From Ceratodon purpureus (taxonomy: Eukaryota > Streptophyta > Bryopsida > Pseudoditrichales > Ditrichaceae), in the NCBI GenBank assembly GCA_014871385.1, contig CM026426.1, positions 61,773,906 to 61,837,905 of the forward strand: DNA of 64,000 nt. Direction: 5' to 3'. Positions 3,001 to 32,408 of this stretch are shown here, in pieces (positions within the stretch are counted from its first letter, which is position 1; each line of letters opens with the position of its first letter). The translations under genes and the position numbers were made by a program. The notes beneath the pieces were generated by a model that was not told where the DNA came from, made no database searches, and was given only the letters and a program-made list of their open reading frames with translations.

Positions 3001-6000
3001 ATTCCCTTTATCTACCAAATCAATTGCCTCGAGCCCTTGCAAACAGTTCATCATATTATTTATTATATGTTAGAGCATGGTCTGCGTCGTTTGTACAATA
3101 AAATATTAAGTTTGACTTAATTATCTCTAATTTAACTCCTTTCCACTCCATGCTATTGATTTTATTTTATTCCCTTCAACTCCCAAATCAATTGCCTCGA
3201 GCCATTCCTAACGGATATTTATATTATTAATTATATGTTAGAGCATGGTTTGCGTCGTTTGTACAATATTATATATAGATTGACTTAATAATCTCTAATC
3301 CAACTCCCTTCCACTCTATTGCATTGATTTTATTTTATTCCCTTTATCGCCCAAATCATCTGCGTCGAGCTCTTCTTAAGGGTTCTTTATATTATTAATT
3401 ATATGTAAGTGCATTGTTTGTGTCGTATGTACAATAAAATATATAGATTGACTTGATTATCTTTAATCCAACTCTCTTCCACTCCAAGCTATAGATTTTA
3501 TTTTATTCTCTTTATCTCCCAAATCATTTGCCTCGAGCCCTTCGTAACGGTTCGTTATATTATTAATTATATGTTAGAGCATGGTTTGCGTCGTTTGTAC
3601 AATAAAATATATAGTTTGACTTGATTATCTCTAATTGAACTCCCTTCCACTCCATGCTATTGATTTTATTTTATTCCCTTTATCTCCCAAATCAATTGCC
3701 TCGAGCCCTTGTTAACAGTTCTTTATATTATTAATTAAATGTAAGTGCATTGTTTGTGTCGTATGTACAATAAAATATATAGATTGACTTGATTATCTTT
3801 AATCCAACTCCCTTCCACTCCATGCTATTGATTTTCTTTTATTCCCTTTATCTCCCAAATCATTTGGCTCGAGCCCTTCGTAACGGTTCATTATATTTTT
3901 AATTATATTTTAGAGCATTATTTGTGTCGTATGTTCAATAAAATATATAGTTTGACTTGATTATCTCTTATTTAACTCCCTTGCACTCCATGCTATTGAT
4001 TTTATTTTATTCCCATTATCTCCCAAATCAATTGCCTCGAGCCCTTCCTAACGGATATTTATATTATTAATTATATGTTAGAGCATGGTTGGCATCGTTT
4101 GTACAATATTATATATAGATTGACTTGATAATCTCTAATCCAACTCCCTTCCACTCCATTGCATTGATTCTATTTTATTCCCTTTATCTCCCAAATCAAT
4201 TGCCTCGAGCTCTTCTTAAGGGTTCTTTATATTATTAATTATATGTTAGAGCCTTGTTTGCATTGTATGTACAATAAAATATATATAGATTGACTTGATC
4301 ACTCTAATCCAACTCTCTTCCACTCCATGCTATTGATTTTATTTTACTTTCTTTATCTCCCAAATCAACTACCTCGAGCCCTTCCTAAGGGTTCTTTATA
4401 TTATTAATTATATGTTAGAGCATTTTTTATGTCGTATGTACATAGAATTATAAAGGTTGACTTGATTATCTCTAATCCAACTCTCTTCCACTCCACGCTA
4501 TTGATTTTATTTTCTTCCCTTTATCTCCCAAATCAACTGCCTCGAGCCCTTTGTAACGGTTTTTTTATATTTTTAATTTTATGTTAAAGCATTGTTTATG
4601 TCGTATGTACATAGATTTATATAGATTGATTTGTTTATCTTTAATCCAACCCTCTTCTACTCCATGCTGTTGCTTTTCTTTTATTCCCTTTATTTTCCAA
4701 ATCAATTGCGTCCAGCCCTTCGTAACGGTTCTTTATATTATTAATTATATGTTAGAGCATTGTTTGTGTTGTATGTACATAGAATTATAAAGATTGATTT
4801 GTTTATCTCTAATCCAACTCACTTCCACTCCATGCTATTATTTTAATTATATTTCCTTTATCTCTCAAATCACCTGCGTCGAGCCCTTCGTAATGGTTCT
4901 TTATTTAATTAATTATATGTTAGCGCAATGTTTGTGTCGTATGTTCAATAAAATATATAGATTGATTTTTTGTCTCTAATCCAACACTCTTCCACTCCAT
5001 GCTATAGATTTTATTTTATTCCCTATATCTCCCATATCAATCGCCTCGAGCGCTTCTTAACGAATATTTATATTATTAATTATATGTTAGAGCATTATTT
5101 GTGTCGTATGTTCAATAACATATATAGATTGATTTTCTTATTAATATTCTAACTCCCTTGCACTCCATGCTACTGATTTTATTTTATTTCATTTATCTTC
5201 TAAATCAAATGCCTCGGGCCCTTCGTAACGGTTCTTTATATTATTAATTATATGTTCGAGAATTGTTTGTGTTGTATGTACATAGAATTATATAGATTAA
5301 TTTGTTTATCTCTAATCCAACTCTCTTCCTTTCCATGCTTTTGATTTTATTTTATTTCCTTTATCTCCCAAATCAACTCCCTCGAGCCCTTTGTAAGGGT
5401 TCTTTTCATTTTTAATTTAATGTTAAAGCATTCTTTGTGTCCTATGTACATAGAATTATACAGATTGATTTGTTTATCTCTATTCGAACTCTCTTCCACT
5501 CCATGCTATTCATTAAATTTTATTCCCTTTATCTCCCAAATCAATCGCCTCGAGCCCTTCTTAACGAATCTTTATACTATTAATTTTATGTTAGAGCATT
5601 ATTAGTGTCGTATGTTCAATAAAATATATAGATTGGTTTGTTTATCTCTAATCCAACTCTCTTCCACTCCAAGCTATTCATTTTATTTAATTCCCTTTAT
5701 CTTTCAAATCAATTGCCTCGAGCTCTTTCAAACGGTTCTTTATATTATTAATTATATGTTATAGCATTGTTTGTGTCGTATGTTCAATAAAATATATAGA
5801 TTGATTTGTTTTTCTCTTATCCAACTCTCTTCAACTCCATGCTATTGATTTGATTTTATTCCCTATATCTCCCAAACCCATTGCCTCATGCCCTAGTTAA
5901 CGGTTCTTTATATTATTATTTATATGTAAGTGCATAATTTGTGTCGTATGTTCAATAAAATATATGGATCGATTTGTTTATCTATATTCTAACTCTCTTC

Positions 6001-7625
6001 CTGTCCATGCTATTGATTTGATTTTATTTCCTTTATCTCCCAAATCAACTGCCTCGAGCCCTTCGTGACGGTTCTTTATATTATTAATTATATCTTTGAG
6101 CATTGTTTGTGTCGTATATTCCATAAAATATATAGATTGACTTGATTATCTCTTATCCAACTCCGTTGCACTCCATGCTATTGATTTTATTTTATTCCCT
6201 TTATCTCCCAAATCAATTGCCTCCAGCTCTTCGTAACGGTTTTTTATATTATTAATTATATCTTAGAGCATTGTTTGTGTTGTATGTACATAAAATTATA
6301 AAGATTAATTTGTTTATCTCTAATCCAACTCACTTCGACTCCATGCTATTATTTTAATTTAATTCCCTTTATCTCCCAAATCAACTGCCTCGAGCCCTTT
6401 GTAACGGTTCTTTACATTACCAATTATATGTTACTGCATTGTTTGTGCGGTATGTACATAGAATTATATAGATTGATTTGATTATCTCTTATCAAACTCT
6501 TTTCCATTCCATTCTATTGATTTTATTTTATTCCCTTTATCTCCCAAATCAATTGCCTCGAGCCTTTCGTAACGGTTCTTTATATTATTAATTATATGTT
6601 ACAGCATTTTTTATGTCGTATGTACATAGAATTATATTAGTTGACTTCATTATCTCTAATCCAACTCTCTTCCACTCCACGCAATTGATTTTATTTTCTT
6701 TCCTTTATCTTCCAAATCAATTGCCTCGAGCCCTTGCAAACGGTTCTTTATATTATTAATTATATGTTAGAGCATGGTTTGCTCCTTTGTACGATAAAAT
6801 ATTTAGTTTGACTTGATTATCTTTAATTTGACTCCCTTCCACTCCATGCTTATGATTTTATTTTATTCCTTTCATCTCCCAAATCAACTGCCACGAGCCC
6901 TTCTTAATAGTTTTTTATATTACTATCTAGATGTTAGAGCATTGTTTGTGTCGTATGTACAATAAAATATATAGATTAACTTGATTATCTCTAATCCAAC
7001 TCTCTTTCCCTCCATGGTATTGATATTATTTTATTCCCTTTATCTCCCAAATCAACTGCCTCAAGCCCTTCGTAACTGTTCTATATATTATTATTTCAAT
7101 GTTAGAGCATTGTTTGTGTCGTATGTACAATTAAATATGTAGATTGACTTGATTATCTTTAATCCAACTCTCTTCCTTTCCGTGCTATTGATTTTATTTT
7201 ATTCCCTTTATCTCCTAAATGAACTGCCTCGAGCCTTTCCTAAGGGTTCTCTATATTATTAATTATATGTTAGAGCCTTGATTGCTTGGTATGTACAAAA
7301 GAACATATATAGATTAACTTGATTATCTCTAATCCAACTCTCTTCCACTCCATGCTATTGAGTTTAGTTTATTCCCTTTATCTCCCAAATCAATTGCCTC
7401 GAGCCCTTACAAACGTTTCTTTATATTATTAATTATATTTAGGGCATTGTTTGTGTCGTATGTACATAGAATTATATAGATTAACTTGATTATCTCTAAT
7501 CCAACTCCCTTCCACTCCATGCTATTGATTTTATTTTATTCCCTTTATCTCACAAATCAAGTGCCTGGAGCCCTCCGTAACGGTTTTTTATATTAATAAT
7601 TATATGTTAGAGCATGGTTTGCTTG
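1..7625. repeat. Satellite array A, ~168-bp monomer
   Basis: Head-to-tail AT-rich monomers of about 168 bp, roughly 45 copies. Landmarks recur in fixed order: TTTATCTCTAATCCAACTC, CTCTTCCACTCCATGCTATT, GATTTTATTTTATTCCC, TTTATCTCCCAAATCAA, TTGCCTCGAGCCCTTCGTAA, TATATGTTAGAGCATTGTTT, GTCGTATGTACA. The unit equals 56 codons, so short chance peptides repeat with it; none is a gene. At least two monomer types are mixed: one with GTACATAGAATTATATAGATTGATTTG and one with GTACAATAAAATATATAGTTTGACTTG. The length is close to nucleosomal spacing, as in many centromeric satellites; a centromeric role is inference only. Confidence 0.95.
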
Positions 7626-8022: not shown

Positions 8023-9480
8023 TTAATCGGGGAGGGTGGGTAATGTTTGTTTGTTCTCCACTCGCCGTTTGGTGAGGATGATATGGTGTAAACATTTGAT
8101 GGCGTTGGTATGGATTGCTTTGAGGGTTCGGTTGATTAGCGCATCATGGACTTTGAGTTGGGGGTGTTTGGAGAGGGTGTTTTTGATGTTGGCATGAATA
8201 GCACCTCGGGCTCCAGCCGTGAGGACAAGTAGGGGTGCAACATTCCAACCATGAGCGGAGATGGCTTGGAGAAGGGGGGCGTATTTGGTGGTTTTGTTAG
8301 TGATACTTTCGGGGGGGAAGCGATCATGGCAGTAAGTGAATTCAATGAATTGGATGGTGAGGTGGGGGTGAGGTTCTATAGGTGGAGGGGAGTCAAGGGG
8401 ATGATTGAGAACAAGGAGGATATCAGGGCGGAGTCGTGCCGGGCAATGGCAAGGTTGTGAAATGCATGTGCAAGGGAGGAGCCACGCGGGAACGGTGTTT
8501 TCGGAGGTGCGGGTGTGATGTTTGCCAGCGTTGATAAGGTTATAGTATCGGGTTTTTGTGTTAGACATAAACATTTTGTGTATATCCCAAACGGCATTGT
8601 TATGGCGTTTGATGCGAAGGCGGTGTATGTTTTGTTCTGGGCAGGCTAAGAGTAAATGGAGCCAAGTATCAATAGATTGAGCTGGACAGATTGTGCAGTT
8701 GATGGATGTATGTTGTGTTGGCCAGAAGAGGTGTTTGCGAGCATTGCCCATGTATTGGCCATATCTAAATTTGAGGAATTGAGTGATTTGCAAATCTGTA
8801 ATCGCGGGGTTTTCCCAGAAGTGGTTGGAGTATGTAGTGTCAATGTCGGCGTTGTTGAGCCATTTGTCTATGTATGTGAGGTTTTTGGCGGTGTCTTTTT
8901 GTTGAATGAGTTCTTCTGTCTGTAGGTATTTTTGTAAGTTGCGGATGGGGTCTTTGAAGGGATGATCAGCTTGTTTAGGGATGGCCCGATGGAGCCAGAA
9001 TGGGGCACTGTGGCCATGGTGAAATGGTTCTGTTTGGTCAAGGCGTGGTAGTAGTGTTCGGGCTTTGGCAAGGCTGTCAGCTTTTTCATTACCGGTGATA
9101 TTCATGTGGGCACGGACTTTGTGGAGAAATGTGGGTGTAGGATTTTGTTGTAGGAGGGCCAAGATGGATTGGAGGAGTAGTTTGTCAGGGTGGTTGTTTT
9201 GGAGGGAAGGTTGTGTGATGTGTGTGCTAATTAGATAAAGGGAGTTGAGACTATCGGTGAAGATGTAGATGGGTTCGGTTTGGGGGGTGGTGAGGATTAG
9301 GGTGTCATGGATAGCGGTAAGTTCGGCACGAAGAATGTTTTGAAGGCCGGGGAGGCGGTAGTGTTTATTTATGTTACGGGCCGGATTGTGTATGCCATAG
9401 CCAGCAATGTCCCCGCTACCGTCGTCCTCAGGGGGGGTAAAAGCGCCATCTGTGAAGTAGCTATCAAGGGGGAATTTATT
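8023..9480 (-). pseudogene. LINE RNase H and C-terminal region
   Basis: The open frame carries a type I RNase H fold. The first catalytic Asp is in YFTDGAF (near 9448), the Glu in RAELTAI (near 9330), the second Asp in IFTDSLNSL (near 9255), and the late motif is RAHMNITGNEKADSLA (near 9100). RNase H degrades the RNA strand of RNA:DNA hybrids during retrotransposition. Downstream is a conserved retroelement tail with FRYGQYMGN and a zinc-knuckle-like CxxC...H...C (NCTICPAQ...WLHLLLACP). The frame is open to its stop at 8023. No initiator ATG is expected because this is the end of a polyprotein. The domain looks complete, but the element lacks its polymerase core. Confidence 0.8.
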
Positions 9481-10139
9481 TTGTGGTATGTCTGTGAAGA
9501 GGGGGCATGGTGGGGTTGGAGGAGAGGGGGGGAGGAGGGGAGGGTTGGGGGCGTTTGTCCAGGCGGGGGTGGAGTTGACTTGGGTGGGGTTTATGGTGAT
9601 TTGAGGATTGCGGGTGGGTGGGGGTTGGAGGAGTTTGAGGAGGGATGTTAGGCGATTGCGGAAGTGGATTTTAAAAGGGGTGTGTGGGAAGCGGGAGGGG
9701 AGTCGGTGAACGCATAATATTTGGAAAGCAGAAGGTTCGGTGGGTGTGGGGGTGGGTTTGGTGGGGTGTTTGGGCAGGAGGGGGGTTTCATAAGGGAGGG
9801 AGTCGGCAGGGAGGTAGGTTAATACGTGGGTGTCGTTGTATTGGTGTGAAAGTGGAGTTTTGTTAGTGTACCATTGGAGGTCGGGGGTAAGTATTATGGT
9901 GTAATGGTTGGGATCATCCTGGGAAGCAAGGCGGGCCTAATGGAGGGCTTGTGTGGCTAATTCGGGTGTGTGGGGGTGGGCAAGGCCAACAGTTTGCCAT
10001 TTGTGTTGGAAGACAGGGCCTAAGGAGCCAAAGATTTGATCTCTCGGGTGAGGGGAGTTGTAATGTGAGAGTTGAAGAGGGCAGGTGATTGGAGAAGAGA
10101 ATTATGAGTGTGTTATTCCGAAAGTGGAGATGAGATAGC

Positions 10140-10631
10140 TTAGGATGTCAGGGTGGATGTGGAATTGGCTTTGTTTGTGGGAGTCATCTCTAGGATTGTA
10201 GTTGGTGTATCGTTGGTAGAGATGGACCACCTCAGATTCAAAATCCTGGAGAGGGGGGGGGTGAGAGTAATCTTTGTGGTTAAGAAGGTTTGATATTGGG
10301 ACCAGAGCCATTCGAGTCGAGGTATTGGGATGGCCAAGAGGTGTTTGCCAGTATGGTCGTACAAGTGGGCGTCGGTGGAACGTTTAATGATGAGGGGGCG
10401 AGAGGTATGGATATCCGTGTCAGGATTGCATTCGTTGATTGAGATGCGAACATGTGCAAGGTTTTTGGGGCGAGTGCGGTGGCGGGAATCAGTGGTTTGT
10501 GTGTGAAAGAAGTGTTTGGAGAGGACAGTGGAGTAGTGCTGGTGTTGACGGGTGGTATAGTATTGTTGTAGAATGAGAAGGTTATGGTTAGTGAGGGTGG
10601 GGTTGGTGTAGGGGAAAATATGTTTTTCCAA
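10140..10631 (-). pseudogene. LINE connecting region between RT and RNase H
   Basis: A 163-residue open segment in the same orientation as the flanking RT and RNase H parts. It is rich in His, Thr and Pro and has no domain I recognise. Its position between the RT thumb-like region and RNase H identifies it as polyprotein linker. About 650 bp between it and the RNase H frame (9481-10139) is read in broken frames. Confidence 0.5.
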
Positions 10632-10717
10632 GAGCCAGAGGGTGTAGGTGTGTTGAGTGGGGAGTGTCCAAGAGCATTTATATTTGTGAGAGAGGTATTT
10701 GGTGCCCGAGGCTCTGT

Positions 10718-12314
10718 CTAATCGAGTGAAGGTGGTAATGTGGTGGATGTGGGTGAGGGGAAGGTGTTTGAGGCGGGCGGGAGAGAGAACGGGGGGAGGG
10801 TTGGGGGTAAGGGGTGGGATAGAATTGGGAGGTATTGGGGGATGGGGGAGAGGGGGGGGGGGGGTGGAACGTTGGTTGGTGGTACGGAGGGAGGAGGGTG
10901 GAAATCAGGGAGGAGGGAGTTGGTAAGGTGGTGAGAAGAGCAAGGGGGGGTACATCGAGAGTGGCATGGGGCGGGGTGGCAGAACATGATTTGACAACAC
11001 AGTAAAGCGGTTTGTTGGATTTGTGTACATGTGCTGTATTTAGTTTTAAATTGTGTTTGGTTGAGGAGAGTGGTTCCTATGGGGGATGTGAGGTGGGAAA
11101 GGTGTTGTATTCCGGTTGTGTATAGTTTGTGAAGTATTTTGTTGCTAGCATGGAGTTGGGGGGGTGGAAGTTTGTGTTTGTTGGCGGTCCATAAAACTTC
11201 CAGGGGTGTAATGGAATGTGGGAAGGAATCATCAAAACTATGGATTTGTATTTCAGCTTGGTGGAGGAGAGGAATGGTGCGGGTGGTTGGAGAGTGGAGG
11301 CAGGCTCTAGTGGTAATGGGGTCAAGGGTTGTGGAGCCTTTGTGTATGGCCATGATAAAACGAACGAGGCCTCGGTATATGATGCCAAGTTGGCCAGGGT
11401 TGTTGAGGGCATCACGGAGTTGTTCGCCAATGCATTTGATGTAATCATTGGTGAAGGAGAATGCTTCAATGCCAAAGAGTTTGTTGGGAAGTTGGGTGGT
11501 AAGGTTCGGGGTGCTACGGGGGAGTTTACAGATAGTTTTGGTGGTTGCAACAATGATTTTGTCTAATTTGCGGATATCAAGTAGGGAGTAGGGGACGGCA
11601 TGAAAGCCGTAGGCAACCCCTGGGCGAAGAACAGTGTTCACAATTTTGATTTTCTGACGGAGTGTGGCGGGGGAGAGTTGGAGTTGTTGGCGTTGTTTCA
11701 GGAGTTTTTTGGTGGAAAGGTCTCGTTGGAGAGTCCATTTGAGGGAGGGGACAAGTTGGAGGCCAAGGTATTTATAGGGTTCGTTTTGGGATAGGACCGG
11801 GAGTGGGGTGTTGTTGTATGTTATATTATGGGCTTGGATGAAGGCTTTAAACGCTATTGGTGTAAGGTGGAATTTGTTGGGGCAGCCTGTAATAGCACAT
11901 TTGGAGATGCTGAGGTCCATGCCGGTAGCAGGGCGTTGGGCAGCCGAGTTGGAGATGGCCGTAATCGCGTCTGCCATCTGCTGGCGAGTGGGGAGATCGT
12001 CCAATTTGCGAGCAGCCTTGGAGGGGGCAGAGCCATAGATGCTGTGAAAATGGGTCTCAAAATCAATGAAATGCCCTAGGAATTCCATGGCCTTCTTGCG
12101 GCACCAAATGGTGTAGACTTGGGCATTGAGGCAGGTGAGAAATGCAATTCCGTTGTGTCGGTCGTCTGGGTCATGTTGTGAAAGGCTATAGCTAACTGTG
12201 ACGACGTTTTTGGGTCCGAGCAGCTTGTGTAGGGCGGAGGTGACTAAGGTCTTCGAAGCCCGCCTGGGGAGGTTTCGGATGATGATGGTCGTAGAGGTAG
12301 GGAGGCCGGGGTCT
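10718..12314 (-). pseudogene. Fused RRM-like ORF1 part and RT C-terminal part
   Basis: One minus-strand frame is open from about 12314 to 10718. Its first ~75 residues look like an RNA-recognition motif: an RNP2-like IIIRNLP near 12285 and an RNP1-like HNGIAFLTC near 12150. RRM domains are typical of plant LINE ORF1 proteins, which bind the element RNA. The same frame then runs into what is normally the region just after the RT active site (GMDLSISKCAITG, then KYLGLQLVPSLKW). Endonuclease and the RT fingers and palm are therefore absent, and the two ends are joined in frame. The C-terminal 90 residues are Pro/Ser-rich. Confidence 0.7.
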
Positions 12315-12727
12315 TCAAGGGCTCCAGTCTCTGCGGTGACGTTGCTTGCGGTGGTGGTCTCGTTCTGAATTGTCGGTGGCTAACATTGCTATTACAAGTT
12401 CGCGATATTGATTTGTCAGAGGGATGTCCATCTGTGCAAAGCGCTCCATGGCAAGGTTCTGGACTTCATCCTTCGTCATCTGGTGGTAATGGGAGTCAAA
12501 GCGGATGAGTATTGAGTATGACGGTGAGAGGTAGGTTACCGGGTCTTTCTTCACGTGTTTGGGAAGCTGGGTGAAATGGAGATAATCACCAGGAATTGTG
12601 TCTGGGCGTTGTGAAGGAAAAAGGCTTTGGGGGATCCAGGATAATGCGGTGCGGCAGTGGCGCAGTTCTTGAACCTCTGAGTCTGGCATGCCCAGGGCGA
12701 GCAGCTCCACATCAAAGCGAGGGACCC
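12315..12727 (-). pseudogene. LINE ORF1 N-terminal segment
   Basis: About 135 codons open on the minus strand, beginning where the element abuts the satellite near 12727. The first 18 residues of the longer ORF are satellite-encoded. It ends at a stop at 12315 and the RRM-like domain continues immediately in another frame, so a frameshift separates the two. No domain recognised. It probably represents the 5'-truncated start of ORF1. Confidence 0.5.
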
Positions 12728-12734
12728 AATAAAG

Positions 12735-14838
12735 TATATACTTTGACTTGATTATCTCTAATCCAACCCCCTTGCACTCCATGCTATTGATTTTATTTTA
12801 TTCCCTTTATCTCCCAATTCAATTGCCTCGAGCCCTTGCAAACGATTCTTTATATTATTAATTATATGTTAGAGCATGGTTTGCATCGTTTGTACAATAA
12901 AATATATAGTTTGACTTGATTATCTCTAGTCCAACTCCCTTGCACTCCATACTATTGATTTTATTTTATTCCCTTTATCTCCCGAATCAATTGCCTCGAG
13001 CCCTTCCTAACGGTTATTTATATTATTAACTATATGTTAGAGCATTGTTTATACCTATGTACATTGAAATATATTAATTGATTTGTTTATCTCTAATCCA
13101 ACTCTCTTCCACTCCGTGCTACTGATTTTATTTTCTACCTTTGTCTCCCAAATCAACTGCGTCGAGCCCTTCTTAAGGGTTCTTTATTTTATTAATTATA
13201 TGTTAGACCATGATTTGCGTCGTATGAACAATAAATTATATAGATTGGTTCCATTATCTTTAATCCAACTCTCTTCCACTCCATGCTATTGATTTTATTT
13301 TATTCCCTTTATCTCCCAAATCAAGTGCCTCCAGCCCTTCGTAACGGTTCTTTATATTATCAATTATAAGTTAGAGCATTGTTTGCGTCGTATGTACATT
13401 GGATTATATAGATTGATTTGTTTATCTCTAATCCATCTCTCTTCCACTCCATGCTATTGATTTTATTTTATTCCCTTTATCTCCCAAATCAATTGCCTCG
13501 ATCCCTTCCTAAGGGTTCTTTATATTATTAATTATATCTTAGGGCATTGTTTGTGTGGTATGTACATAGAATTATATAGATTGACTTGATTATCTCTAAT
13601 CCTACTCTCTTCCACTCCATGCTTTTGATTTTATTTTAATCCCTTTATCTACCAAATCAATTGCCTCGAGCCCTTGCAAACAGTTCTTTATATTATTTAT
13701 TATATGTTAGAGCATGGTTTGCGTCGTTTGTACAATAAAATATTAAGTTTGACTTAATTATCTCTAATTTAACTCCTTTCCACTCCATGCTATAGATTTT
13801 ATTTTATTCGCTTCATCTCCCAAATCAATTGCCTCGAGCCCTTGCAAACGATTCTTTATATTATTAATTATATGTTAAAGCATGGTTTGCGTCGTTTGTA
13901 CAATAAAATATATAGTTTGACTTGATTATCTCTAATTGAACTCCCTTCCACTCCATGCTATTGATTTTCTTTTATTCCCTTTATCTCCCAAATCAATTGC
14001 CTCGAGCCCTTTCTTACGGTTCTTTATATTATTAATTATATCTTAGAGCATGGTTTGCGTCGTTTGTACAATAAAATATATAGTTTGACTTGATTATCTC
14101 TTATTTAACTCCCTTGCACTCCATGCTATTGATTTTATTTTATTCCCTTTATCTCCCAAATCAATTGCCTCGAGCCCTTCCTAACGGATATTTATATTAT
14201 TAATTATATGTTAGAGCATGGTTGGCATCGTTTGTACAATATTATATATAGATTGACTTGATAATCTCTAATCCAACTCCCTTCCACTCCATTGCATTGA
14301 TTCTATTTTATTCCCTTTATCTCCCAAATCAATTGCCTCGAGCTCTTCTTAAGGGTTCTTTATATTATTAATTATATGTTAGAGCCTTGTTTGCATCGTA
14401 TGTACAATAAAATATATATAGATTGACTTGATCACTCTAATCCAACTCTCTTCCACTCCATGCTATTGATTTTATTTTACTTTCTTTATCTCCCAAATCA
14501 ACTACCTCGAGCCCTGCCTTACGGTTCATTATATTAGTAATTATATTTTAGAGCATGGTTTGCGTCGTTTGTACAATAAAATACATATTTTGACTTGATT
14601 GTCTTTAATGTAACTCCCTTCCACTCCATGCTATTGATTTTATTTTGTTCCCTTTATCTCCCAAATCAATTGCCTAGAGCCCTTTGTAACGGTTATTTAT
14701 AGTACTAATTATATGTTAGAGCATTGTTTGCGTCGTCTGTACAGTAAAATATATATAGATTGATTTGTTTATCTCTAAGCCAACTTTCTTCCACTCCATG
14801 CTACTGATTTTATTTTATTCCCTTTATCTCCTAAATCC
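12735..14838. repeat. Satellite array B, ~168-bp monomer
   Basis: The same satellite as array A, about 12.5 monomers, in the same orientation. It is mostly of the GTACAATAAAATATATAGTTTGACTTG type. A block at about 14080-14515 is almost identical to 3950-4380 of array A, including private variants such as CATTGCATTGATTC. The last recognisable satellite bases are CTTTATCTCCTAAATC near 14838, where unrelated coding sequence begins abruptly. Confidence 0.95.
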
Positions 14839-15949
14839 GTAGCAGAGAACCTCTTCGACTCCATTTCCTTTATGGAAAGTCTGTGGAATTCACGTTACGA
14901 CGAGATAGTGACCACAATGAGGCAAGAAGTACTGGACAGGAAGTGGGCAACCAAAGATGGACGAACTCTCCCGGCGAAATCCCTAGCGTGGAAACTGAGG
15001 AATGTTGTCAGCACCCTTGCGCTCCGCGCACCGGAGGCAAAGGTGAAGCAGAACCTTGGAAAATATCATATTGATGTTTCTGGAGTGACAGCAACCGGGA
15101 GCCAAATGGGAAGCCAACATACCGGACGCAGTAGGGGGAGAGCAATAGTTCCTTCACAAAGCCGGGGCGCTTCTGCAAACTCGCACACCCCTCTCACCAT
15201 TGAAGAAGAAAGGCCTCGAGAAGAAAACCGACAAGCCAAAGCCCAAGAAGGACTTGCTCTTATCTGCGGAGGACTTGGCAACAAGTTTGAACTCTGTTCT
15301 CGGGGAACTTCCAAAGGTGAACAAGGTTGGAGAGGTCCTGGACTTCGATAATGCCAATCGAATTTACCAGAATTTATTCGCTGATTGCCAGGACGAGTTC
15401 GTCTTCAAAACGAATGGGCAACAGAAGAAGTTCAGTGTGGACGTGACGCGGTGCAAGCCCGCACCGGCCCATTGGACTATCCGTGCATATGAGAAGCGGG
15501 GCATGGAGGAGATGAAGAATTACTTGGTCAACATGCCGGATAGGGCTCAGAAGCAAACCCTGTGTCTGATGCCAGGCACGAAGGCACGACCTCAACAAGA
15601 AGAGGATCTAAGGGGCTGTACATTCCACATCATCAACGGCAAACACAGCGTGGCGGCGTCCAAATCTTTCATCGAGGATAACGCCAGTGAGGAGTTGTTG
15701 AGGAACTTCAGGAGGTGGGATGCGTACATCGTTTGGACGCTTGATATACATAAGCTACGAAAGATCTCAGCATTCTATAATCGGGTGAACCATCTCGCAC
15801 CCTTTAAGCCAACTTGGGCGAGCAATATAATTGCCTCAAGAAAAGTGTGGGTGAAGTATGGTAAGCCCCAAAAGAAACATGCTGCCGCTGGTGCTGCCGA
15901 GCGCAGGAGTACAGGTCCAAAAAGTAATCCAGCGTCGAAGACGTACGAC
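14839..15949 (+). CDS. Gene A exon(s) 1: basic protein with ParB-like motif
   Basis: First part of a protein continuing at 16119. The frame is open from the satellite junction; the first ATG is at 14872, so the true N terminus may be lost. A lysine-rich stretch (KKKGLEKKTDKPKPKKD, near 15200) begins after an apparent frameshift near 15195. The clearest motif is FHIINGKHSVAASK (about 15628-15669) followed by IVWTLDIHKLRKIS and YNRVNHL. The GxHxxxAxK pattern resembles the ParB/sulfiredoxin-like fold (compare GERRxxAA in ParB); this is inference from the motif. The exon ends in phase 0 at GAC|GTAAGT. The family occurs, I believe, in non-seed-plant repeats, but I cannot name it. Confidence 0.6.
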
Positions 15950-15981
15950 GTAAGTTCACAGATTCATTAGCATTAGCAGTT

Positions 15982-15998
15982 TAGCTCGACTCGAGCTA
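15982..15998. promoter_or_regulatory. Inverted repeat 1, GCTC type
   Basis: TAGCTCGA-C-TCGAGCTA: perfect 8-bp arms with one central base, preceded by TT. It lies inside the first intron of gene A. First of eight related inverted repeats in 15.9-20.8 kb. Confidence 0.8.
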
Positions 15999-16047
15999 CA
16001 TATTGATAATCTTCTTTGTTTTCAATATTCTGGTGTATCTCGATCAA

Positions 16048-16068
16048 TTTAGCTCGAGTCGAGCTAAA
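16048..16068. promoter_or_regulatory. Inverted repeat 2, GCTC type
   Basis: TTTAGCTCGA-G-TCGAGCTAAA: perfect 10-bp arms with one central base, in the same intron as repeat 1 and about 68 bp from it. Confidence 0.85.
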
Positions 16069-16118
16069 GAGTAGTTCCGAGACAGCATCATCTAAGGTTT
16101 CTTCCTGTGCATATGCAG

Positions 16119-17372
16119 AACTTTGTGAATGCAATCAAGGAGCGCTTCGCAATGATCGATGTGGCGAAGCATCAAGCCATGGTGGCGAAGAAGGGAGGGA
16201 AGAACACTATCTCCCTAACAAACGAGCTGTTTATCATCGCATCCAGTGATGAAACATGGGACCTGTGGAAGGAGGTGATCGCCTCTGCGGCATGTGGTGG
16301 ACTCATTGATCCCGACACCGAAGCTCCTCATAAGAAATTCTATGAGAAGAAGGGGTTCGTTCTGGACAAGGATGGGACGCTTCCGAGGGAGTTCTTCAAA
16401 TGGCTCGGGAACTTGACAGAGGCAGATCACCAGAAGCTCTGTAAGCACATCCTGCATAAGTCTGGGCCCAATCGCAAGTACACATATCCGAAGGTTACCA
16501 TCAAGCAGAATACGAGTGTATTGGAGGACTGCTACTCGGTCAAGGAGTGGGCGGAGCGGAGAAAACGTAAGGCTGTAGCTCAAGCGGAGTTCAACAATAT
16601 TAATCCAACGCTCCATCTATTCAAAAGAGACGGCTTTGATGTACCCGCTTGGAAGCATTTCAAGAAGACTTACTATGTCTCCAAGGAGTCGAAGCACGTT
16701 CTGCTTGATTGGAGTATTCCAGACTCGTACTGGACTAACTCCAGAGCTACACAGTTCCGCAACAAGTCGGCCAAGGATCTCTCCCTATATGCGGTTGAGT
16801 TCTTTAAAACCTTCCTGAAGGTTCGACATGCGTTTCAGTGTCCTTCAGCTGAGATGTGGTTCCTCCCATTCATCAGGGAGCCTCGACTCGCCTTCGGATC
16901 TTGGCCCTCGGATATATGGAGGTTGGCGGGCGGCGCACTCACATTCGGAATCATCGACTTCCGGTTCCTCCCAACCTACAAGACGAGGCATAACTACACT
17001 TTGGAGAACCCCTTCTTCATGGAGTTTTTCAATATGATCGATGAGTATGGGCAGCCCCAATTTAACGATGTTCGCCACTGGCTTCTTATTTGCGGAGACG
17101 ATGAGGACTTCGCCGAGGTGCTCACTTGGGTGGAGCGAAACACCTTGAGTGGTCGTAGAAGAGTCCATTCTGAGTATTTACCCGCTCCTAACGAGCGACT
17201 CGGCAGACACCCCCCAAAGAGCAAAATCGCGATGGAACCCGTCAAACTCCTGTTTCTCATTGATGATAATGTACTTGAGAACGATGGGTCAACGCCAGAA
17301 CCTCTGAGCAAGTACACAACTCCGGACCACCCACTATACACGGACAACAGGAAGTTCAACGAAAGGAGGTAG
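16119..17372 (+). CDS. Gene A exon 2: conserved middle domain
   Basis: About 417 codons in frame with the preceding exon across a phase-0 intron. It is an even, globular-looking sequence with conserved-looking aromatic blocks (ADHQKLCKHIL, WSIPDSYWTN, FFKTFLKVRHAF, AEMWFLPFIREPRLAFG, WRLAGGALTFG). I do not recognise the domain. The frame ends at TAG (17370-17372), but the same frame continues for another 180 codons, so the stop may be a mutation within a longer protein (a C-to-T change of CAG would explain it). TAG lies inside AGGTAGGC, which could alternatively serve as a splice donor. Downstream it leads into a coiled-coil tail. Confidence 0.6.
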   Translation, partial: NFVNAIKERFAMIDVAKHQAMVAKKGGKNTISLTNELFIIASSDETWDLWKEVIASAACGGLIDPDTEAPHKKFYEKKGFVLDKDGTLPREFFKWLGNLTEADHQKLCKHILHKSGPNRKYTYPKVTIKQNTSVLEDCYSVKEWAERRKRKAVAQAEFNNINPTLHLFKRDGFDVPAWKHFKKTYYVSKESKHVLLDWSIPDSYWTNSRATQFRNKSAKDLSLYAVEFFKTFLKVRHAFQCPSAEMWFLPFIREPRLAFGSWPSDIWRLAGGALTFGIIDFRFLPTYKTRHNYTLENPFFMEFFNMIDEYGQPQFNDVRHWLLICGDDEDFAEVLTWVERNTLSGRRRVHSEYLPAPNERLGRHPPKSKIAMEPVKLLFLIDDNVLENDGSTPEPLSKYTTPDHPLYTDNRKFNERR

Positions 17373-17375
17373 GCA

Positions 17376-17918
17376 ATGTATCCATCCGAGTTAAGGATGG
17401 AGTTCTACCTGCAGGTCCACGACACTTTCTGCAAGCCCAACCCTACAGCTCGGCAAGCATCCCTGTTGGGGAGAGCCGCTCCCTCTCCGGATGTTCAAGC
17501 TCTTTTCGCAGAATTACAGGCGTCCAAGGATAGGAATAAAGCATTACAAGATCAGATGGCACAGCAGAAAATGGATATAGAGAAGACTGTGCAGGCGACA
17601 GTGCAGACGACAGTGCAGGCGGCTCTGCGAGGCTTCAGTAACCTCCCTATTTTCCCGAATGCGGGTCTAGTTCTGCCCAACGTCCAGCCCATAGGTAGCG
17701 ACCCACCTTTTCCGCGAGTACTTGAGATTTTGGGCTCCCCTACCAGTGGTGCAAAATTGCCAATGTCGGATCCGAGTCCCGCATCAGTGCCTGAGCCAAG
17801 CCATCATTGCACCGACCAGGTCATGCGTGACCCTAGTCCCAGCCCACCCCGTTCTCCCTCCGACAATCAGACTCAGGGAGATGCTCCCGAGACATCTTCA
17901 GGTCCCTCCGAAACTTAG
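17376..17918 (+). CDS. Gene A C-terminal part: coiled coil and Pro/Ser tail
   Basis: In the same frame as the preceding exon after one TAG codon. Residues ~45-80 form a short coiled coil with a small repeat (TVQATVQTTVQAA). The remainder is Pro/Ser-rich and probably disordered (SPSPPRSPSDN). It could start at its own ATG at 17376, but in-frame continuity makes it more likely the tail of gene A. It stops at TAG 17916-17918. Confidence 0.5.
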   Translation: MYPSELRMEFYLQVHDTFCKPNPTARQASLLGRAAPSPDVQALFAELQASKDRNKALQDQMAQQKMDIEKTVQATVQTTVQAALRGFSNLPIFPNAGLVLPNVQPIGSDPPFPRVLEILGSPTSGAKLPMSDPSPASVPEPSHHCTDQVMRDPSPSPPRSPSDNQTQGDAPETSSGPSET

Positions 17919-18020
17919 ATTTTTTGAACTCGGAATTTTGTAGATGAGGTGTTAATACCGGAGTAGTTCACTGAAATGTGCATTTTGTACCAAAACGATT
18001 GTAATTAATACAAATGGGCT

Positions 18021-18043
18021 GTTTAGCTCGACCCGAGCTAAAC
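18021..18043. promoter_or_regulatory. Inverted repeat 3, GCTC type
   Basis: GTTTAGCTCG-ACC-CGAGCTAAAC: perfect 10-bp arms with a 3-bp centre. It lies in the non-coding interval between genes A and B. Confidence 0.85.
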
Positions 18044-18112
18044 CGTTCATTTTATTACCAATCCCTTCTATGTCAGCTTCATTGATCACTCTCTGATGAT
18101 TCAATAGTTCTC

Positions 18113-19292
18113 TTGCAATGCCCAGGTCACGAAGTGCATGAGGAAGTGGACGATCTTCGGATCGTGGATGATGTTGTCATGGCCCAAACTGCGGACGAGC
18201 CTGTACGCACAAATATGGATTTAGATGTCACGGCCCGGTGTGCTCTGACCTTGCCAACGTGCATTGAGGTCATTCGTGACGATCAACCTCAGGATTCATT
18301 AGGGTCGATGGGTCCTGTGGAGGATCGGGATGTTGTAGAAGGTCAAGCCGAGGATGTTCAGGTATTTCATCCATCATTATATCTCGTTGCACTGTTTCCT
18401 TGGGTAATGACTTGCCTTGCAACTGTCCTCATTGTATCATTCGTATAACTTCATCCTAGTATAATATAGTAATGTCCATCTGTCATCGGTATTTCCTCTC
18501 CAGGTGCGCCAGGCATCTGGATGTGACGTAAGTTCTAGTGAAGAATTGAGTCCTGTCCCGACGCGACCTCAGAGTGGTTGGTGGAACGTTGTCCTCGACC
18601 TCAATGGAATACTCTGCTCCAGTACTCCTAATTGGCCTGGACAATCATTCGTTAGCCATGACCTTAGCATCCACTCAGCGTCCAAGCCAGCAGTCGAGGG
18701 CCCCAAGCTTGTTTGTATCAGGCCCAATTGCGCTGATTTCCTTCGTCGGTTGTCAACGTTCGCAACCATAACCGTCTGGAGTTCGATGAAGACTTCGACG
18801 ACAAAAATGATCTGCGACTATCTGTTCGGTCCTATTCGTCCTGTCTATCCGCTCAGAATTCTAGGTCAAGAGGACTGTCAGAGAGTTCCTATGGGCGTAG
18901 ATTTTTGAGGTAGTCCCGTATATATGAAGGAACCCGGGACTCAGAAGGACATCTTCCTTAAGCCGATGTCTGATGGTCTCTTTCGTAAATTTGGTGGCCT
19001 ATATTCCGAAGCCAACACCATTTTTATCGACGACAGCCCGATCAAGCACTGTCAGAATAATTCTTACAATGTCCTTTTACTCTCCACTTGGAACAACCAG
19101 AATGCCGATGCCGCAGATGATTGTTTTTTGTTGAAGAAACTTTTGCCATATCTTGTAGACCTACACCACTTTGTGGGGACAATCGCTAGATTCAGGGCCG
19201 AGCGTCCGATCGGGAAGAAAATGTATTATGATGACCGTTCTACCTGTGAACAGTACGCTAAGATTAACGAGGCAATTAGTCGTAGACCATAA
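18113..19292 (+). pseudogene. Gene B: FCP1/NIF-like HAD phosphatase
   Basis: Exon 1 (to 18361) is acidic and Asp/Val-rich. A 142-bp phase-0 intron (18362-18503, GTATTT...CTCCAG) separates it from the catalytic exon. HAD motif I is WWNVVLDLNGIL (near 18590), motif II ITVWSSMKTST (near 18770), and motif IV TIFIDDSPIKHC (near 19020). These mark the FCP1/CTD-small-phosphatase branch of the HAD superfamily, which dephosphorylates proteins. Motif I is DxN rather than the usual DxD: the second catalytic Asp is Asn, so activity may be changed or lost. One in-frame TGA (18906-18908) lies between motifs II and IV, with the same frame continuing from 18909 to the stop at 19292. A decayed paralogue lies at 47160-47994. 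Confidence 0.7.
18362..18503 (+). other. Intron of gene B (phase 0)
   Basis: GTATTTCATC donor after ...GTTCAG and CCTCTCCAG acceptor; 142 bp, phase 0 on both sides. Unlike the introns of A and C it contains no inverted repeat. Confidence 0.75.
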
Positions 19293-19435
19293 TTTGGCAT
19301 GGTTTCGGTTCTCTACTTTGTTAATAGACATTTCTGAACTGCCGCGCAGCGATTAGTATGTTGTACATCTTAACCACTTGCGTAATCTTTGTATCCAGAC
19401 TACTCCTTTTGTAATACGAAGTTCATATTTCTTTC

Positions 19436-20352
19436 TTGATCTACTCTGCCCCTTGCGACGAACCCTTATCCATTGCTGAATTATTGGTGGATGTATGTTT
19501 CTATTCGCTTAGTGTATTGCAGGATAATGCATGTCGAGCCTCTGTGGATTCTTTGAATTATGCTTATGGCTGCGGGCCCTCTCTACGTAGCAGAGGGCTT
19601 CTGTTGCAATCCGTTGCAATAGCGCAGTCCACGATGGACTACTCAACTATGGCTGTCGACGAAGGGGTTGTGGACAGCCCGGTTAACCTGTCCGTTCCCA
19701 CGACCCTCAAATCCCCTTCTCCTATGTGGCCACGGACCGTACTGCAGGTTCTATCTCCGAAACGACAGAGGTCTACCCCTACAAAGCGTGCCCTTTATAA
19801 CAATGTGGAGGACATGCCGTCACCACCACCGGCAAAGGTTGGTTTTCATTCCTCAGTATTCGCTTTTCATTCCTTTCTGATGTTTCATTCTTGTAAGTTT
19901 CTTTCATGATGTTTCATTCTGATGTCCTTATTTTAGCTCGAGGCCACCTAAAATGATTGATATTTTTATACTTTCATCTAGGTCTGGTTCTAGCTTATGT
20001 AGGCCTCCTCGTTCAAGGTCCGTTCGACCTTTACACTTGCACTCAGCAATTTAGGTCGATTCGACCTAAACCGAAATCTCTTCCCAATGCTAATTTATCC
20101 CCTTTGCAGATGCCGAGGCTACGATCAACAACTACTGGATCCAGGGCAAGGAAGTCCGCCAATTCCCACTCTAAACCATCCAGTACCCGTCGCCACTCTC
20201 TGCCTGAGTCAAGCATCGGTGACAGGCGTAGGCAGAAGTGGCAACGTCTTCTTGATAGTCCAATGATGCAGGTTGAGGGAATGTCGTGGACACGTCAGCG
20301 CCAAAGGGAATTTGTCAAGTCAAGAATTGAGGCTAACGGAGGGACTCCATAA
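19436..20352 (+). CDS. Gene C: small basic Ser/Pro-rich protein, two exons
   Basis: Exon 1 (ending 19837) has a characteristic DEGVVDSP segment followed by Ser/Pro/Arg-rich sequence (SPKRQRSTPTKRAL). A 272-bp phase-0 intron (19838-20109, GTTGGT...CTTTGCAG) leads to exon 2 (20110-20352), which is very basic: MPRLRSTTTGSRARKS..., ending KSRIEANGGTP and TAA. The true start is uncertain; it could lie near an ATG at 19634 (MDYSTMAVDEG). The sequence suggests a disordered, perhaps nucleic-acid-binding protein. No domain recognised. The same DEGVVDSP/SPSPLKRL signature is found at 48590-48700 downstream of the paralogous HAD gene, so B and C travel together. Confidence 0.55.
19931..19952. promoter_or_regulatory. 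Inverted repeat 4, hybrid of both types
   Basis: TTTTAGCTCGAGG-CCACCTAAAA. The left arm is of the GCTC type and the right arm of the ACCT type, so only TTTTAG/CTAAAA pair fully. It lies exactly between the run of GCTC-type copies upstream and GGTC-type copies downstream. Confidence 0.6.
20015..20031. promoter_or_regulatory. Inverted repeat 5, short GGTC type
   Basis: AAGGTC-CGTTC-GACCTT: 6-bp arms with a 5-bp centre, in the intron of gene C. It lacks the outer TTTA/TAAA of the other copies. Confidence 0.55.
20050..20070. promoter_or_regulatory. Inverted repeat 6, GGTC type
   Basis: TTTAGGTCGA-T-TCGACCTAAA: perfect 10-bp arms and a one-base centre, as in repeat 2 but with C and G exchanged at matching positions of both arms. 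Confidence 0.85.
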
Positions 20353-20656
20353 CCATATAGAGGATACTATGTACTGTATAGCAATGGCGCAGACAATATA
20401 GACGATTATAAGAGTCCTCTGTGTTATTTCAATGTAATTATGTTTTGAATAATACGATTGATCTGTTTGTCAAATTTTCTCGTCTGCTATTTTTGCCTCA
20501 TTGTCTTGCACACTTTTTGTGTTATTCAAATTTCCGAATGTAATTTATGTGATTGGACATTGCCTTTTATTGAAACCTTGGTTTGGAAAGGTAACGAATA
20601 GTTACTACTAAAATTACAAGGGACGTGGTATATTCTTTTTCCTTGTTTATATTGCG

Positions 20657-20677
20657 TTTAGGTGTGATCAACCTAAA
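20657..20677. promoter_or_regulatory. Inverted repeat 7, GGTC-like
   Basis: TTTAGGT-GTGATCA-ACCTAAA: 7-bp arms, 7-bp centre. It lies in the non-coding flank about 300 bp after the stop of gene C. Confidence 0.65.
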
Positions 20678-20757
20678 TGACTTAATTATCATCTCTCTAT
20701 AAACATGTTTTTAATGAATCAATGAACATTACTAAGTTTTCTCCTGTATGTTCGTGC

Positions 20758-20780
20758 ATTTAGGTCCACTCGACCTAAAT
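20758..20780. promoter_or_regulatory. Inverted repeat 8, GGTC type
   Basis: ATTTAGGTC-CACTC-GACCTAAAT: perfect 9-bp arms with a 5-bp centre, between gene C and the transposase-like gene. Confidence 0.75.
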
Positions 20781-20943
20781 GACATGGACCTCATTGTTCC
20801 TTTAAGGTGTTTTTAATGATTCAATATTGATTTCCGCAAGATTGAAGTAAATGGGAGGGGACGAATGTGGCCATTTCTCTACACGCTGATTTCCCAAATT
20901 CAAGAATATCTCCCAAAATAACGAATATGGTGTTATAACATTG

Positions 20944-22553
20944 ATGTGGGAGTCATGTGTGTGTCCAAAAGGAGAATATGATGTGTGGCATAGACTTGAG
21001 TGCCTTATGGGCGACTGTTTTGAGTGTGGTTCCATCTCCTTCCTCTAGAGTTGTCTGCTCCTAATACGGCTCTTGTGAAATGGAAGTGTTTTGAGTACTA
21101 CCAGGTGGGAGTGGATGCACGGACTAGAAAGGTGAAGAAACGGTTGCGGGAGGCTATCAGAGAGACAGCTGCCCACGAATTCCTTTCATACATGGAGAAA
21201 ACCATAACGACTTTCATCACCTACAACTTCAAAGCACAATGGCAGGATGAGCAGTGCCAACTGATGATGAAGAACGTGCCTGAGGGAGTTGTCATATCGC
21301 ATATTGACTATGCGGAGAACTATACTTTTGTTATCCAAAACGAGATCCAGAGCTTGTACTACTTGAGTACAAGTGTGACCATCTTTGTGCACATTATGAT
21401 CTGGAAGGAAGGCGAGCAGACCATGAAGCAAACCCACTTCTATATATCCGACGACAAGGCACACGACTCAGCATGTGTGCAGCACTGTTTGCTGTTGCAT
21501 TGGGATTGGCTGAGAGATTCGGGGTTGACTCCGGAGGAGCACTGGGTGTACAGTGACGGATGTAGTGCCCAGTTTAAGTGTGCAACAACTATGTATTTTG
21601 TTGCTCGGTACCCTGCGCTCACCGGTGGTTGTAAGATGCGATGGAACTATTTTGAATCGGCTCACGGGAAGGGAGAATGGGATGGGGCAGGGGCTGTGGT
21701 GTAGAGGGCGCTTGCTGCTGAACAAATTCAGAATCCCTTGAGGCCCTTACAGAATGCATCTCAAGTTGTGGAGTTCTTAGAGGAGAAGTATACAGAGCGT
21801 GTTCCCAGCTCATATGCTAATACCATAATTGCTCCTCTATCTCGAGTATTCTGGTTGATTGGCAATACAGAAGTTGATCATAGTGACAAGAGTGTAAAGT
21901 GTAACACTCTGCCAGGCTCGAAGAGTCTCTACTCAATCATGGGCTTTTCTATGACTGATCCTACCATGCTTAGAACTTGTGAGTTGTCTTGCTTCTGTAA
22001 TCCTTGCATAGACTGTGATTGGACTGAGTGTGAGAACTTGTCACATGTGCAGGAGTGGAAGGTCCAGAGGCTCTCTCCATTGAGTGCAAGTGCTGTGGCT
22101 CATCAAATTGAAGAAATTGACGAGGAAATAAACTGGGTGTATGACGGCATTTCAGAAGAGGTGGAAGACTTGGTGGACATTGGTGACAACTTCATGATTC
22201 CAGCGGAGGAAGAGATCGAAGACGGTGTAGAATTCTACATTCTACAGTGTCAAGCCAAGAAGTTTGTCTTAATAGAACCCATGACTTGCCCATGGAGGGG
22301 CGTATTCAGGGCTGGAGACTTTGTGATCAGGGCAAAATATTACAAGAAGTATGGTCGTGGAGAGAAGACATATGTATTGTGTGACAAAGCAGTTGATGCA
22401 CATATCAATGCCCATCTAGTTAGAGCTTGCAAATCTTGGATGGTTCTTGCTACACACAGGGCAAAGGGTAATCCTGTATACAAGATCTCCAGTGAAACGC
22501 AAAGGATATGTGAAGATGCCTTGCGAGAGTGGTGGGCGTTCAATGCAGAGTAA
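20944..22553 (+). pseudogene. Transposase-like gene (three acidic motifs)
   Basis: ATG at 20944 opens a Cys-rich start (ESCVCPKG, GDCFECG) that shifts frame near 21035 into a long frame. Numbered from 21024, it carries HIDYAENYTF (Asp95), VYSDGCSAQFK (Asp178) and ESAHGKGEWDGAGAVV (Asp220). The order and context resemble an RNase H-fold DD(D/E) integrase or transposase; classification is inference. A single in-frame TAG (21702-21704) follows AVV, after which the frame is open to TAA at 22553. The C-terminal half has a Cys cluster (CELSCFCNPCIDC) and an acidic segment. I associate relatives with repetitive proteins of non-seed plants and some animals, but cannot name the superfamily. Confidence 0.6.
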
Positions 22554-31445: not shown

Positions 31446-32300
31446 ATTAATATTTTCGCCTAAGATTTTTAATAGAGACTCATTATACTGCAAAGTGTAT
31501 GTGGTAAAATTTGCAAAGCCAGATTCCAATTTTAATACCTTCATCTAGAAATTTTAGGTTTAAAGTTTCGGGCGGGCACTTTGAAATTAGGTTTTTTTAA
31601 GATTTTTTTTCTTGAAACATGTTCATAACCAAAGCACTACTCAAATTCCAAAGAGACCCCCATGAAAAAGTTTACCATTTTTACAAGGGCAGCCTCCAAA
31701 AATTACGATAACAAGCATCAAAATTTTTGAATTAATTCTTTCAAAATTTACCAAAATTTGAGATTTTGGAATTTTTCAAAAATAATTTCTTTCAAAAATC
31801 ACAAAACCATAAAGGGACCTTACCACTGTTTAGATTTTTCTAAAACCAAATATATGTAACGTCATGCATGTTTTACTATGTCGTTGTTTTCAGATCTGCT
31901 TATAGAAAATGATTTTAATGAAGGTATAAAAAGATGAATGAGTCTCTCAAATTTTTCATGGAGGTACCCAACTTGATTAGCTACATGGAAAAAAATATGA
32001 CCATGATGTTTGATGTAAAAATCTTCAACTCCTCCTTTGCACCATGAAGACAATGCCTCTTAAGCAAGGCCTAAAAAAACTTTTGAACAAACTTTGGATG
32101 TTACGATCATGCAAATGATAAACATCCAACGGTTAATTTTTTGGAAGGTAACTTGAAATAGGCTTATGTAGAGGATCTTACGGTTGAAAGTTTTAAATAA
32201 ATAAAAAAATTTGGTACATACTCCCGGGAGTGCATAGAGGTAGAAAATCGCAGTTTTGAAGTTTTAGAGCTCCAAAAACACCATGGATTTTTAGAGGTTA
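31446..32300. other. LTR element untranslated spacer before gag
   Basis: AT-rich, no coding frame of note. Ends in a (CCA/CCT)n stretch that would encode Pro/Gln in the gag frame. Confidence 0.5.
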
Positions 32301-32395: not shown

Positions 32396-32408
32396 TTATT
32401 CATATAGA

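What the first reader, a model, noticed from the sequence alone, without database searches (positions are those of the whole stretch)
15982..20780. Eight related inverted repeats in introns and spacers of a three-gene block
Eight copies of TTTAGSTCGA-n-TCGASCTAAA or close variants lie at 15982, 16048, 18021, 19931, 20015, 20050, 20657 and 20758. None is in coding sequence: five are in the phase-0 introns of genes A and C, three in spacers or 3' flank. A palindrome of 20 paired bases is not expected once by chance in this window, let alone repeatedly. This pattern fits binding sites for a dimeric protein, perhaps encoded by the same block, or RNA hairpins in pre-mRNA that influence splicing or small-RNA production.
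Basis: seen in the sequence. Interest (0 to 1): 0.88.

Follow-up and report, generated by a model that had tools for sequence, protein, structure and literature searches.

The report
Palindrome site arrays in moss transposon
The repeated palindromes are the element-specific recognition sites of a large DNA transposon in a moss, placed beside its genes, in its introns and near its ends, and their sequence changes symmetrically from one transposon family to the next, as expected if a protein partner reads them.

Summary
The palindromes are real and far beyond chance, but the block is not host genes. The window holds the right-hand 6.1 kb (14838-20934) of a degraded copy of an 18.9-kb DNA transposon with 27-bp inverted repeats and 4-bp target duplications (7 of 7 copies with both ends found). 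The genome is inferred to be Ceratodon purpureus. It holds 2,486 exact palindromes; of 44 listed on contig C1, 43 lie in two element copies. Copy E1 has about 30 sites: two arrays at about 47- and 52-bp spacing beside the 5' ends of two divergent genes, and others in introns, spacers and near the ends. The window's seven are all non-coding. Most array-2 spacers differ beyond recognition between copies while palindromes stay nearly intact. Two distant families carry sites at corresponding non-coding places with symmetric substitutions shared by most sites of an element, as expected of a co-evolving dimeric DNA-binding protein. The best candidate is gene A, modelled as ParB plus beta-class methyltransferase folds with altered catalytic motifs. 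Such accessory proteins are reported in algal transposons (PMC12477816, passages); my searches found no cis-sites described for them. Binding and function (self-regulation or anti-silencing) are inferred.

The parts
14838..20934 (+). Right-hand remnant of an 18.9-kb DNA transposon (homologous to the right 6.8 kb of copy E1, with an internal loss of about 660 bp)
   Evidence: blastn to copy E1 at 92.8 and 94.7% identity, window 14838-17433 and 17438-20934
20908..20934 (-). Right 27-bp terminal inverted repeat
   Evidence: window right end read; same 27 bp at the left end of E1
14838..15949 (+). Gene A exon 1 (truncated, frameshifted): ParB-fold part
15950..16118 (+). Gene A intron 1, holds two palindromes
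   Evidence: GTAAG..GCAG borders; homologous ORFs lose similarity there and many run into palindromes
16119..17433 (+). Gene A exon 2 (in-frame TAG at 17370): beta-class methyltransferase-like fold
17438..17918 (+). Remnant of exon 3 of gene A (low-complexity, coiled-coil-like by eye)
   Evidence: translation compared with E1
18116..19292 (+). Gene B: HAD phosphatase of the FCP1/NIF kind (intron 18362-18503; in-frame stop at about 18906)
   Evidence: PF03031 E 5.4e-8 for 18507-18905, 1e-13 in copy E1
19631..20352 (+). Gene C, small protein, intron 19838-20109 with palindromes (start uncertain)
   Evidence: translation and splice borders
15980..16000 (.). palindrome (fused from two)
16048..16068 (.). 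palindrome, perfect
18022..18042 (.). palindrome in spacer before gene B
19932..19952 (.). palindrome in gene C intron
20015..20031 (.). weak inverted repeat (AAGGTC..GACCTT)
   Evidence: read only
20050..20070 (.). palindrome, perfect
20657..20677 (.). degenerate palindrome, right subterminal
20759..20779 (.). palindrome, right subterminal

Best explanation
The palindromes are dyad-symmetric recognition sites (core CTCGANTCGAG) for a dimeric DNA-binding protein encoded by the transposon itself, most likely gene A, a ParB-fold plus beta-class methyltransferase-fold protein. Shown: the sites belong to the element, lie in non-coding DNA where tested, sit in arrays beside the 5' ends of the two divergent genes T and A, are kept while much of the neighbouring DNA changes, and change symmetrically and largely together from family to family. 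Inferred: A binds them; binding marks the element's own regulatory DNA, to control its promoters or to counter host silencing as VANC proteins do in Arabidopsis VANDALs. The altered catalytic motifs suggest a reader rather than an active methylase.
For: 2,486 exact sites, 0 for the reversed control; of 44 listed on C1, 43 in two copies. Arrays of 9 + 9 sites in E1 and 8 + 10 in E2; most array-2 spacers differ beyond recognition between E1 and E2/E3 (by eye) while sites are kept with 0-1 mismatch. Sites off-consensus in 40 of 2,641 cells against 236 of 5,793 in surrounding introns and 609 of 20,273 in all non-coding DNA, 13 copies. Translated palindromes in the last 80 residues of 11 of 36 exon-2 and 20 of 46 exon-1 homologous ORFs that run into introns; at most 0.045 expected per pattern in shuffles. 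Pair 3-19 is T-A in 31 of 32 sites of family 1, C-G in 8/8 and 8/10 (family 2) and 14/17 (family 3); pair 5-17 is G-C in 30/32, 7/8 and 8/10, A-T in 14/17 of family 3. 25 cells with two-sided change, 0 of 500 shuffles as high, at most 2 in slid controls. A-domain folds.
Against: No binding, methylation or expression data. The fold matches rest on models; Foldseek had no match at E <= 0.001. In one search two of five measures do not exceed shuffles (pairs with a two-sided change 4 vs 3.5, 278/500; further pair types 8 vs 7.5, 263/500), and the sites had been chosen by likeness to a palindrome. In the ten most alike copies the conservation contrast is weak (p 0.11 per cell, 0.035 per column against non-coding). 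Cells and sites are not independent; the family comparison amounts to two or three evolutionary events. Neighbouring sites do recombine, so part of the uniformity could be homogenisation.
Confidence: 0.6

Rival explanations
1. The sites bind the transposase T (DUF7869) and serve excision and integration, as subterminal repeats do in other DNA transposons; internal arrays are regulatory by-products.
For: Sites or degenerate sites lie 50, 204, 306, 521, 675 and 831 bp from the left end and two lie near the right end, with 102- and 154-156-bp spacings among them. T is the likely transposase (inference).
Against: The best-kept and densest sites are internal, beside gene starts and in introns; the three outermost left sites have 4-5 mismatches.
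Confidence: 0.2
2. The sites act as RNA hairpins in pre-mRNA that influence splicing or small-RNA production.
For: Many sites are in introns. Both arrays may lie in 5' introns, since acceptor-like sequence lies near the first ATG of T and A (seen).
Against: Sites also lie near the ends and in spacers. The 21-mer leaves a 3-nt loop at best for a 9-bp stem. Two-sided changes (25 cells) outnumber G-U pairs (5 cells), though these are few events. Array spacing is regular.
Confidence: 0.08
3. The sites are read by a host factor (repressor, insulator, origin protein) that the element exploits.
For: Same core in three families.
Against: Families 1 and 3 share the same genome but differ symmetrically at two pairs, so one host protein would have to read both.
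Confidence: 0.07
4. The palindromes are ends of a MITE or a short repeat spread and homogenised by conversion, without a reader.
For: Neighbouring sites recombine: the window's 31-bp deletion; array-1 spacers occur in both orientations.
Against: A solitary site shares only short stretches around the palindrome (mostly 24-32 bp, up to 48) with the element's sites; one solitary site among 44 listed on C1; sites in unlike flanks at corresponding places in distant families.
Confidence: 0.05

Closest known systems
ParB-like + DNA methyltransferase accessory protein of Ectocarpus transposon Sola1-1_Ec32 and algal relatives (PMC12477816, passages read)
   Same: Large DNA transposon (21.5 kb there, 18.9 kb here); ParB-like and N6A/N4C methyltransferase-like domains in one protein on the strand opposite the transposase; proposed there to bind and modify its own element.
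   Different: Moss host; methyltransferase motifs appear altered here; HAD/NIF and further genes here; cis-sites are described here, and the passages I read report none.
VANC anti-silencing proteins and YAGTATTAY motifs of Arabidopsis VANDAL elements (PMC5735166, passages read; PMC10398659, abstract)
   Same: Element-specific short motif in dense, fast-changing arrays in introns, intergenic and terminal non-coding DNA; motif and protein proposed to co-evolve.
   Different: The word palindrome does not occur in the main text of PMC5735166 and its motifs are arrayed in one orientation; VANC was not compared with A; here no methylation data.
ParB-parS / KorB-OB plasmid systems (PMC11790492 and PMC5577506, passages read)
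   Same: ParB-fold protein and palindromic operators near promoters; outer arms TTTAGC..GCTAAA of family 1 equal those of the KorB operator.
   Different: 9 bp instead of 1 bp between those arms; families 2 and 3 do not keep the arms, so the match is probably coincidence; no ParA was sought.

Membership tests
TIR DNA transposon (class II) | Terminal inverted repeats and fixed-length target duplication | tested here: met
   27-bp perfect TIR; 4-bp duplication in 7 of 7 copies with both ends found
Sola superfamily | 4-bp target duplication (recalled) | tested here: met
Sola superfamily | Transposase homologous to Sola transposases | not tested
   T matches only DUF7869 in Pfam; no Sola reference was compared
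ParB-methyltransferase transposon accessory proteins | ParB-like domain | tested here: met
ParB-methyltransferase transposon accessory proteins | N6A/N4C methyltransferase fold | tested here: met
ParB-methyltransferase transposon accessory proteins | Catalytic DPPY and SAM FxGxG motifs | tested here: inconclusive
   Alignment shows IDFR and FxGxK where these would be expected; residue-level structural register not checked
VANDAL/VANC | Short element-specific motif arrayed in non-coding DNA | tested here: met
VANDAL/VANC | VANC-homologous protein and induced loss of DNA methylation | not tested
   no VANC sequence compared; no methylation data held
ParABS/KorB | CTP-dependent clamp, HTH binding parS/OB | not testable with these tools
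   fold only

The most novel reading that the evidence does not exclude
A eukaryotic transposon has turned a bacterial-type ParB-methyltransferase into a self-recognition protein that reads a palindromic code spread through the element's gene starts, introns and ends, marking whole copies for expression or escape from silencing. Each family carries its own co-evolved version of the code, so lineages stop cross-activating one another.
Probability: 0.35. Interest if true: 0.9.

Novelty: new variant of a known kind. Interest (0 to 1): 0.8.

Why it matters
ParB-methyltransferase accessory proteins have been noted in algal transposons and proposed to bind and modify their own element (PMC12477816), but the passages I read name no target sites. 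Here a candidate cis-code is visible, with about 2,500 exact copies, several natural variants and a predicted protein partner, so the proposal can be tested directly by binding assays across matched and mismatched families. It would be a second, separately built example of sequence-specific self-recognition by plant transposons besides VANC, in a moss whose putative V sex chromosome holds many copies.

Tried and rejected
First left boundary (ATAGCTGCC...) was wrong: three further copies share E1's flank; the true end is 385 bp further left, with the TIR. Copy E2 is cut there by another repeat. Absence of TIR/TSD, and hence Helitron- or Crypton-like ideas, dropped.

KorB operator match (TTTAGC..GCTAAA): probably coincidence, since families 2 and 3 change the arms. 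The centre GANTC equals the CcrM site (recalled) and CcrM is a top fold match; left as a lead only.

Virus origin: no exact palindrome in viral contigs, no relatives of A there. PADLOC: none for three proteins. NCBIfam for the 36 members of A3: no sensible match. Sequence search of PDB with profiles A2, A3, A4: nothing convincing (best E 0.013, TFIID subunit 10). Structure of T was not predicted (both jobs went to A).

Guess that the family of P0097 lies at the start of C3 failed for T: no tblastn match to P0097 or P0085 in C3:1-40000; that stretch showed family 3 instead. The left-end count and protein searches of the whole genome did not complete, so copy number rests on right ends.

Palindrome conservation: the four-copy and 13-copy tests favour it; the 10-copy subset is weaker (p 0.11 per cell, 0.035 per column against non-coding; 0.023 per cell against introns). 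L019 (only the last 0.4 kb is element) was left out.
Full report
WHAT IS THERE. The palindrome TTTAGSTCGANTCGASCTAAA occurs at seven of the eight reported places; the eighth is weak. A gapped exact search found two perfect copies in the window and none in 100 shuffles. None of the seven is coding. In the whole genome the exact pattern (0-6 central bases) occurs 2,486 times, and 0 times when read backwards. Only the first places are listed there; C1 (29.0 Mb) seems complete because C2 follows. It has 44: 22 at 301.9-316.1 kb, 21 at 18.419-18.434 Mb, and one alone, which has a half site about 70 bp away.

THE ELEMENT. Stretches around these clusters are copies of one element. A first left boundary was an error. 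Eight more left stretches showed the true end in six (not in L027 and L033). With E1 this gives seven copies with both ends: a 27-bp perfect terminal inverted repeat and 4-bp target duplications TTGT, ATAC, CCAT, TCAT, AAGA, TTTT, CTGG, 7 of 7. Copy E1 is 18,938 bp. Ten further copies, chosen by their right-end sequence, all change to unlike flanks right after it. The right-end pattern with up to 3 mismatches has 89 + 84 = 173 places; of the 100 listed, 75 are on C6. C6 (110,524,308 bp) and C3 (25,160,467 bp) have the lengths of the contigs of Ceratodon purpureus proteins KC19_VG296900 and KC19_3G000300, so the genome is very probably that moss and C6 its V chromosome (inference). The window's copy is the right part, 14838-20934, joined on its left to a 168-bp satellite.

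WHERE THE SITES LIE. In E1 there are 34 sites at 5 mismatches or fewer. Six are near the left end (50-831). Nine are in an array at 47-48-bp spacing outside the 5' end of T. Nine are in an array, mostly at 52-53 bp, outside the 5' end of A. Three are in A intron 1, two in A intron 2, one before B, two in the C intron and two near the right end (placed by comparing). Most array-2 spacers differ beyond recognition between E1 and E2/E3 (by eye; the last one aligns, and E2 and E3 resemble each other), while sites have 0-1 mismatch; array-1 spacers occur in both orientations.

CONSERVATION. Across 13 copies, sites are off-consensus in 40 of 2,641 cells (1.5%), non-coding DNA outside them in 609 of 20,273 (3.0%), introns outside them in 236 of 5,793 (4.1%). 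Without the three most divergent copies the contrast is weaker (1.0, 1.5 and 1.8%; p 0.11 and 0.023 per cell). Cells are not independent.

OTHER FAMILIES. Homologous ORFs in metagenome data often run past the splice donor into the intron. In their last 80 residues 20 of 46 exon-1 homologs and 11 of 36 exon-2 homologs carry a translated palindrome; none has one in the rest of its length; per-pattern expectation in shuffles is at most 0.045; of 120 T homologs 0 have one in the tail and 0-2 per pattern elsewhere. DNA of distant relatives agrees. Two contigs filed under a cyanobacterial MAG but carrying the intron-bearing block (L025: A; L026: A, B and C-like; best segment 43% identical to P0004) have 8 and 8 sites at corresponding non-coding places, 0 in the exon intervals tested, about 0.01 expected, mostly TTCAGCTCGANTCGAGCTGAA or close to it. 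A third family in the same Ceratodon genome (C3:17.4-24.4 kb; exon 1 29%, exon 2 32-37%, B 45% identical) has 16 listed sites, mostly TTCAACTCGANTCGAGTTGAA, at corresponding places. Pair 3-19 is T-A in 31 of 32 (E1), C-G in 8 of 8, 8 of 10 and 14 of 17; pair 5-17 is G-C in 30 of 32, 7 of 8 and 8 of 10, A-T in 14 of 17 (the looser search there includes some chance hits). On 31 distinct sites, 91.9% of cells pair and 25 cells change on both sides (shuffles mean 9.8, none of 500 as high; slid controls at most 2); two measures, pairs with a two-sided change (4 vs 3.5) and further pair types (8 vs 7.5), do not exceed shuffles. The sites were picked by likeness to a palindrome, so the pairing percentage is inflated. 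The sites of an element thus move largely together and symmetrically, which fits a co-evolving dimeric reader; homogenisation alone is less likely, since sites lie in unlike flanks.

MECHANISM. Sites at both gene starts, in introns and near the ends, in changeable arrays, match the VANC-target pattern in VANDAL elements (PMC5735166, passages). ParB-methyltransferase accessory proteins, on the strand opposite the transposase, are reported in an Ectocarpus Sola1 element and in algae, with the suggestion that they bind and modify their own element (PMC12477816, passages). I therefore take A as reader (inferred, about 0.55) and self-regulation or anti-silencing as function (inferred, about 0.4). 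That some element-encoded protein reads the sites I hold at about 0.8.

NOVELTY. Literature searches (open-licence library only, listings seen) found no description of this moss element or of palindromic sites for such proteins. The protein type is known; the site code and its family-wise change appear new.

Noticed in passing
window 1-7621 and 12727-14837: 168-bp satellite array (about 43 and 13 copies, 83-86% matches), split by a leftward LINE-like stretch (ORFs 8023-12379, by eye).
   Followed up: no
window 21024-22553: ORF pair right beside the element with a transposase-like look (YSDGCSAQFK .. SAHGKGEWDGAGA); no Pfam match.
   Followed up: partly
window 32295-35564: Long ORF with zinc knuckles, Ty3/gypsy-like by eye.
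   Followed up: no
window 43541-43762: Two perfect tandem copies of a 112-bp unit.
   Followed up: no
L025, L026: Contigs of MAG 'Synechococcales AVDCRST_MAG81' carry this intron-bearing transposon block: the bin looks contaminated by moss DNA. P0064 (AVDCRST_MAG94, Leptolyngbya) looks alike.
   Followed up: partly
G000 C6: 75 of the 100 listed right ends lie on C6, the putative V chromosome, 30% of the assembly (73 further places not listed).
   Followed up: partly
L008-L010 (E2), L011 (E3): Another repeat with sharp end ..GGATCCCACA lies at three places in these loci and abuts and cuts two copies of the element.
   Followed up: partly
E1 element, array 1: Spacers between identical palindromes occur in both orientations, as if segments had been inverted between sites.
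   Followed up: partly
E1 element 50-831 and 18661-18763: Several subterminal sites are spaced 102 and 154-156 bp, near multiples of the 52-bp array spacing.
   Followed up: no
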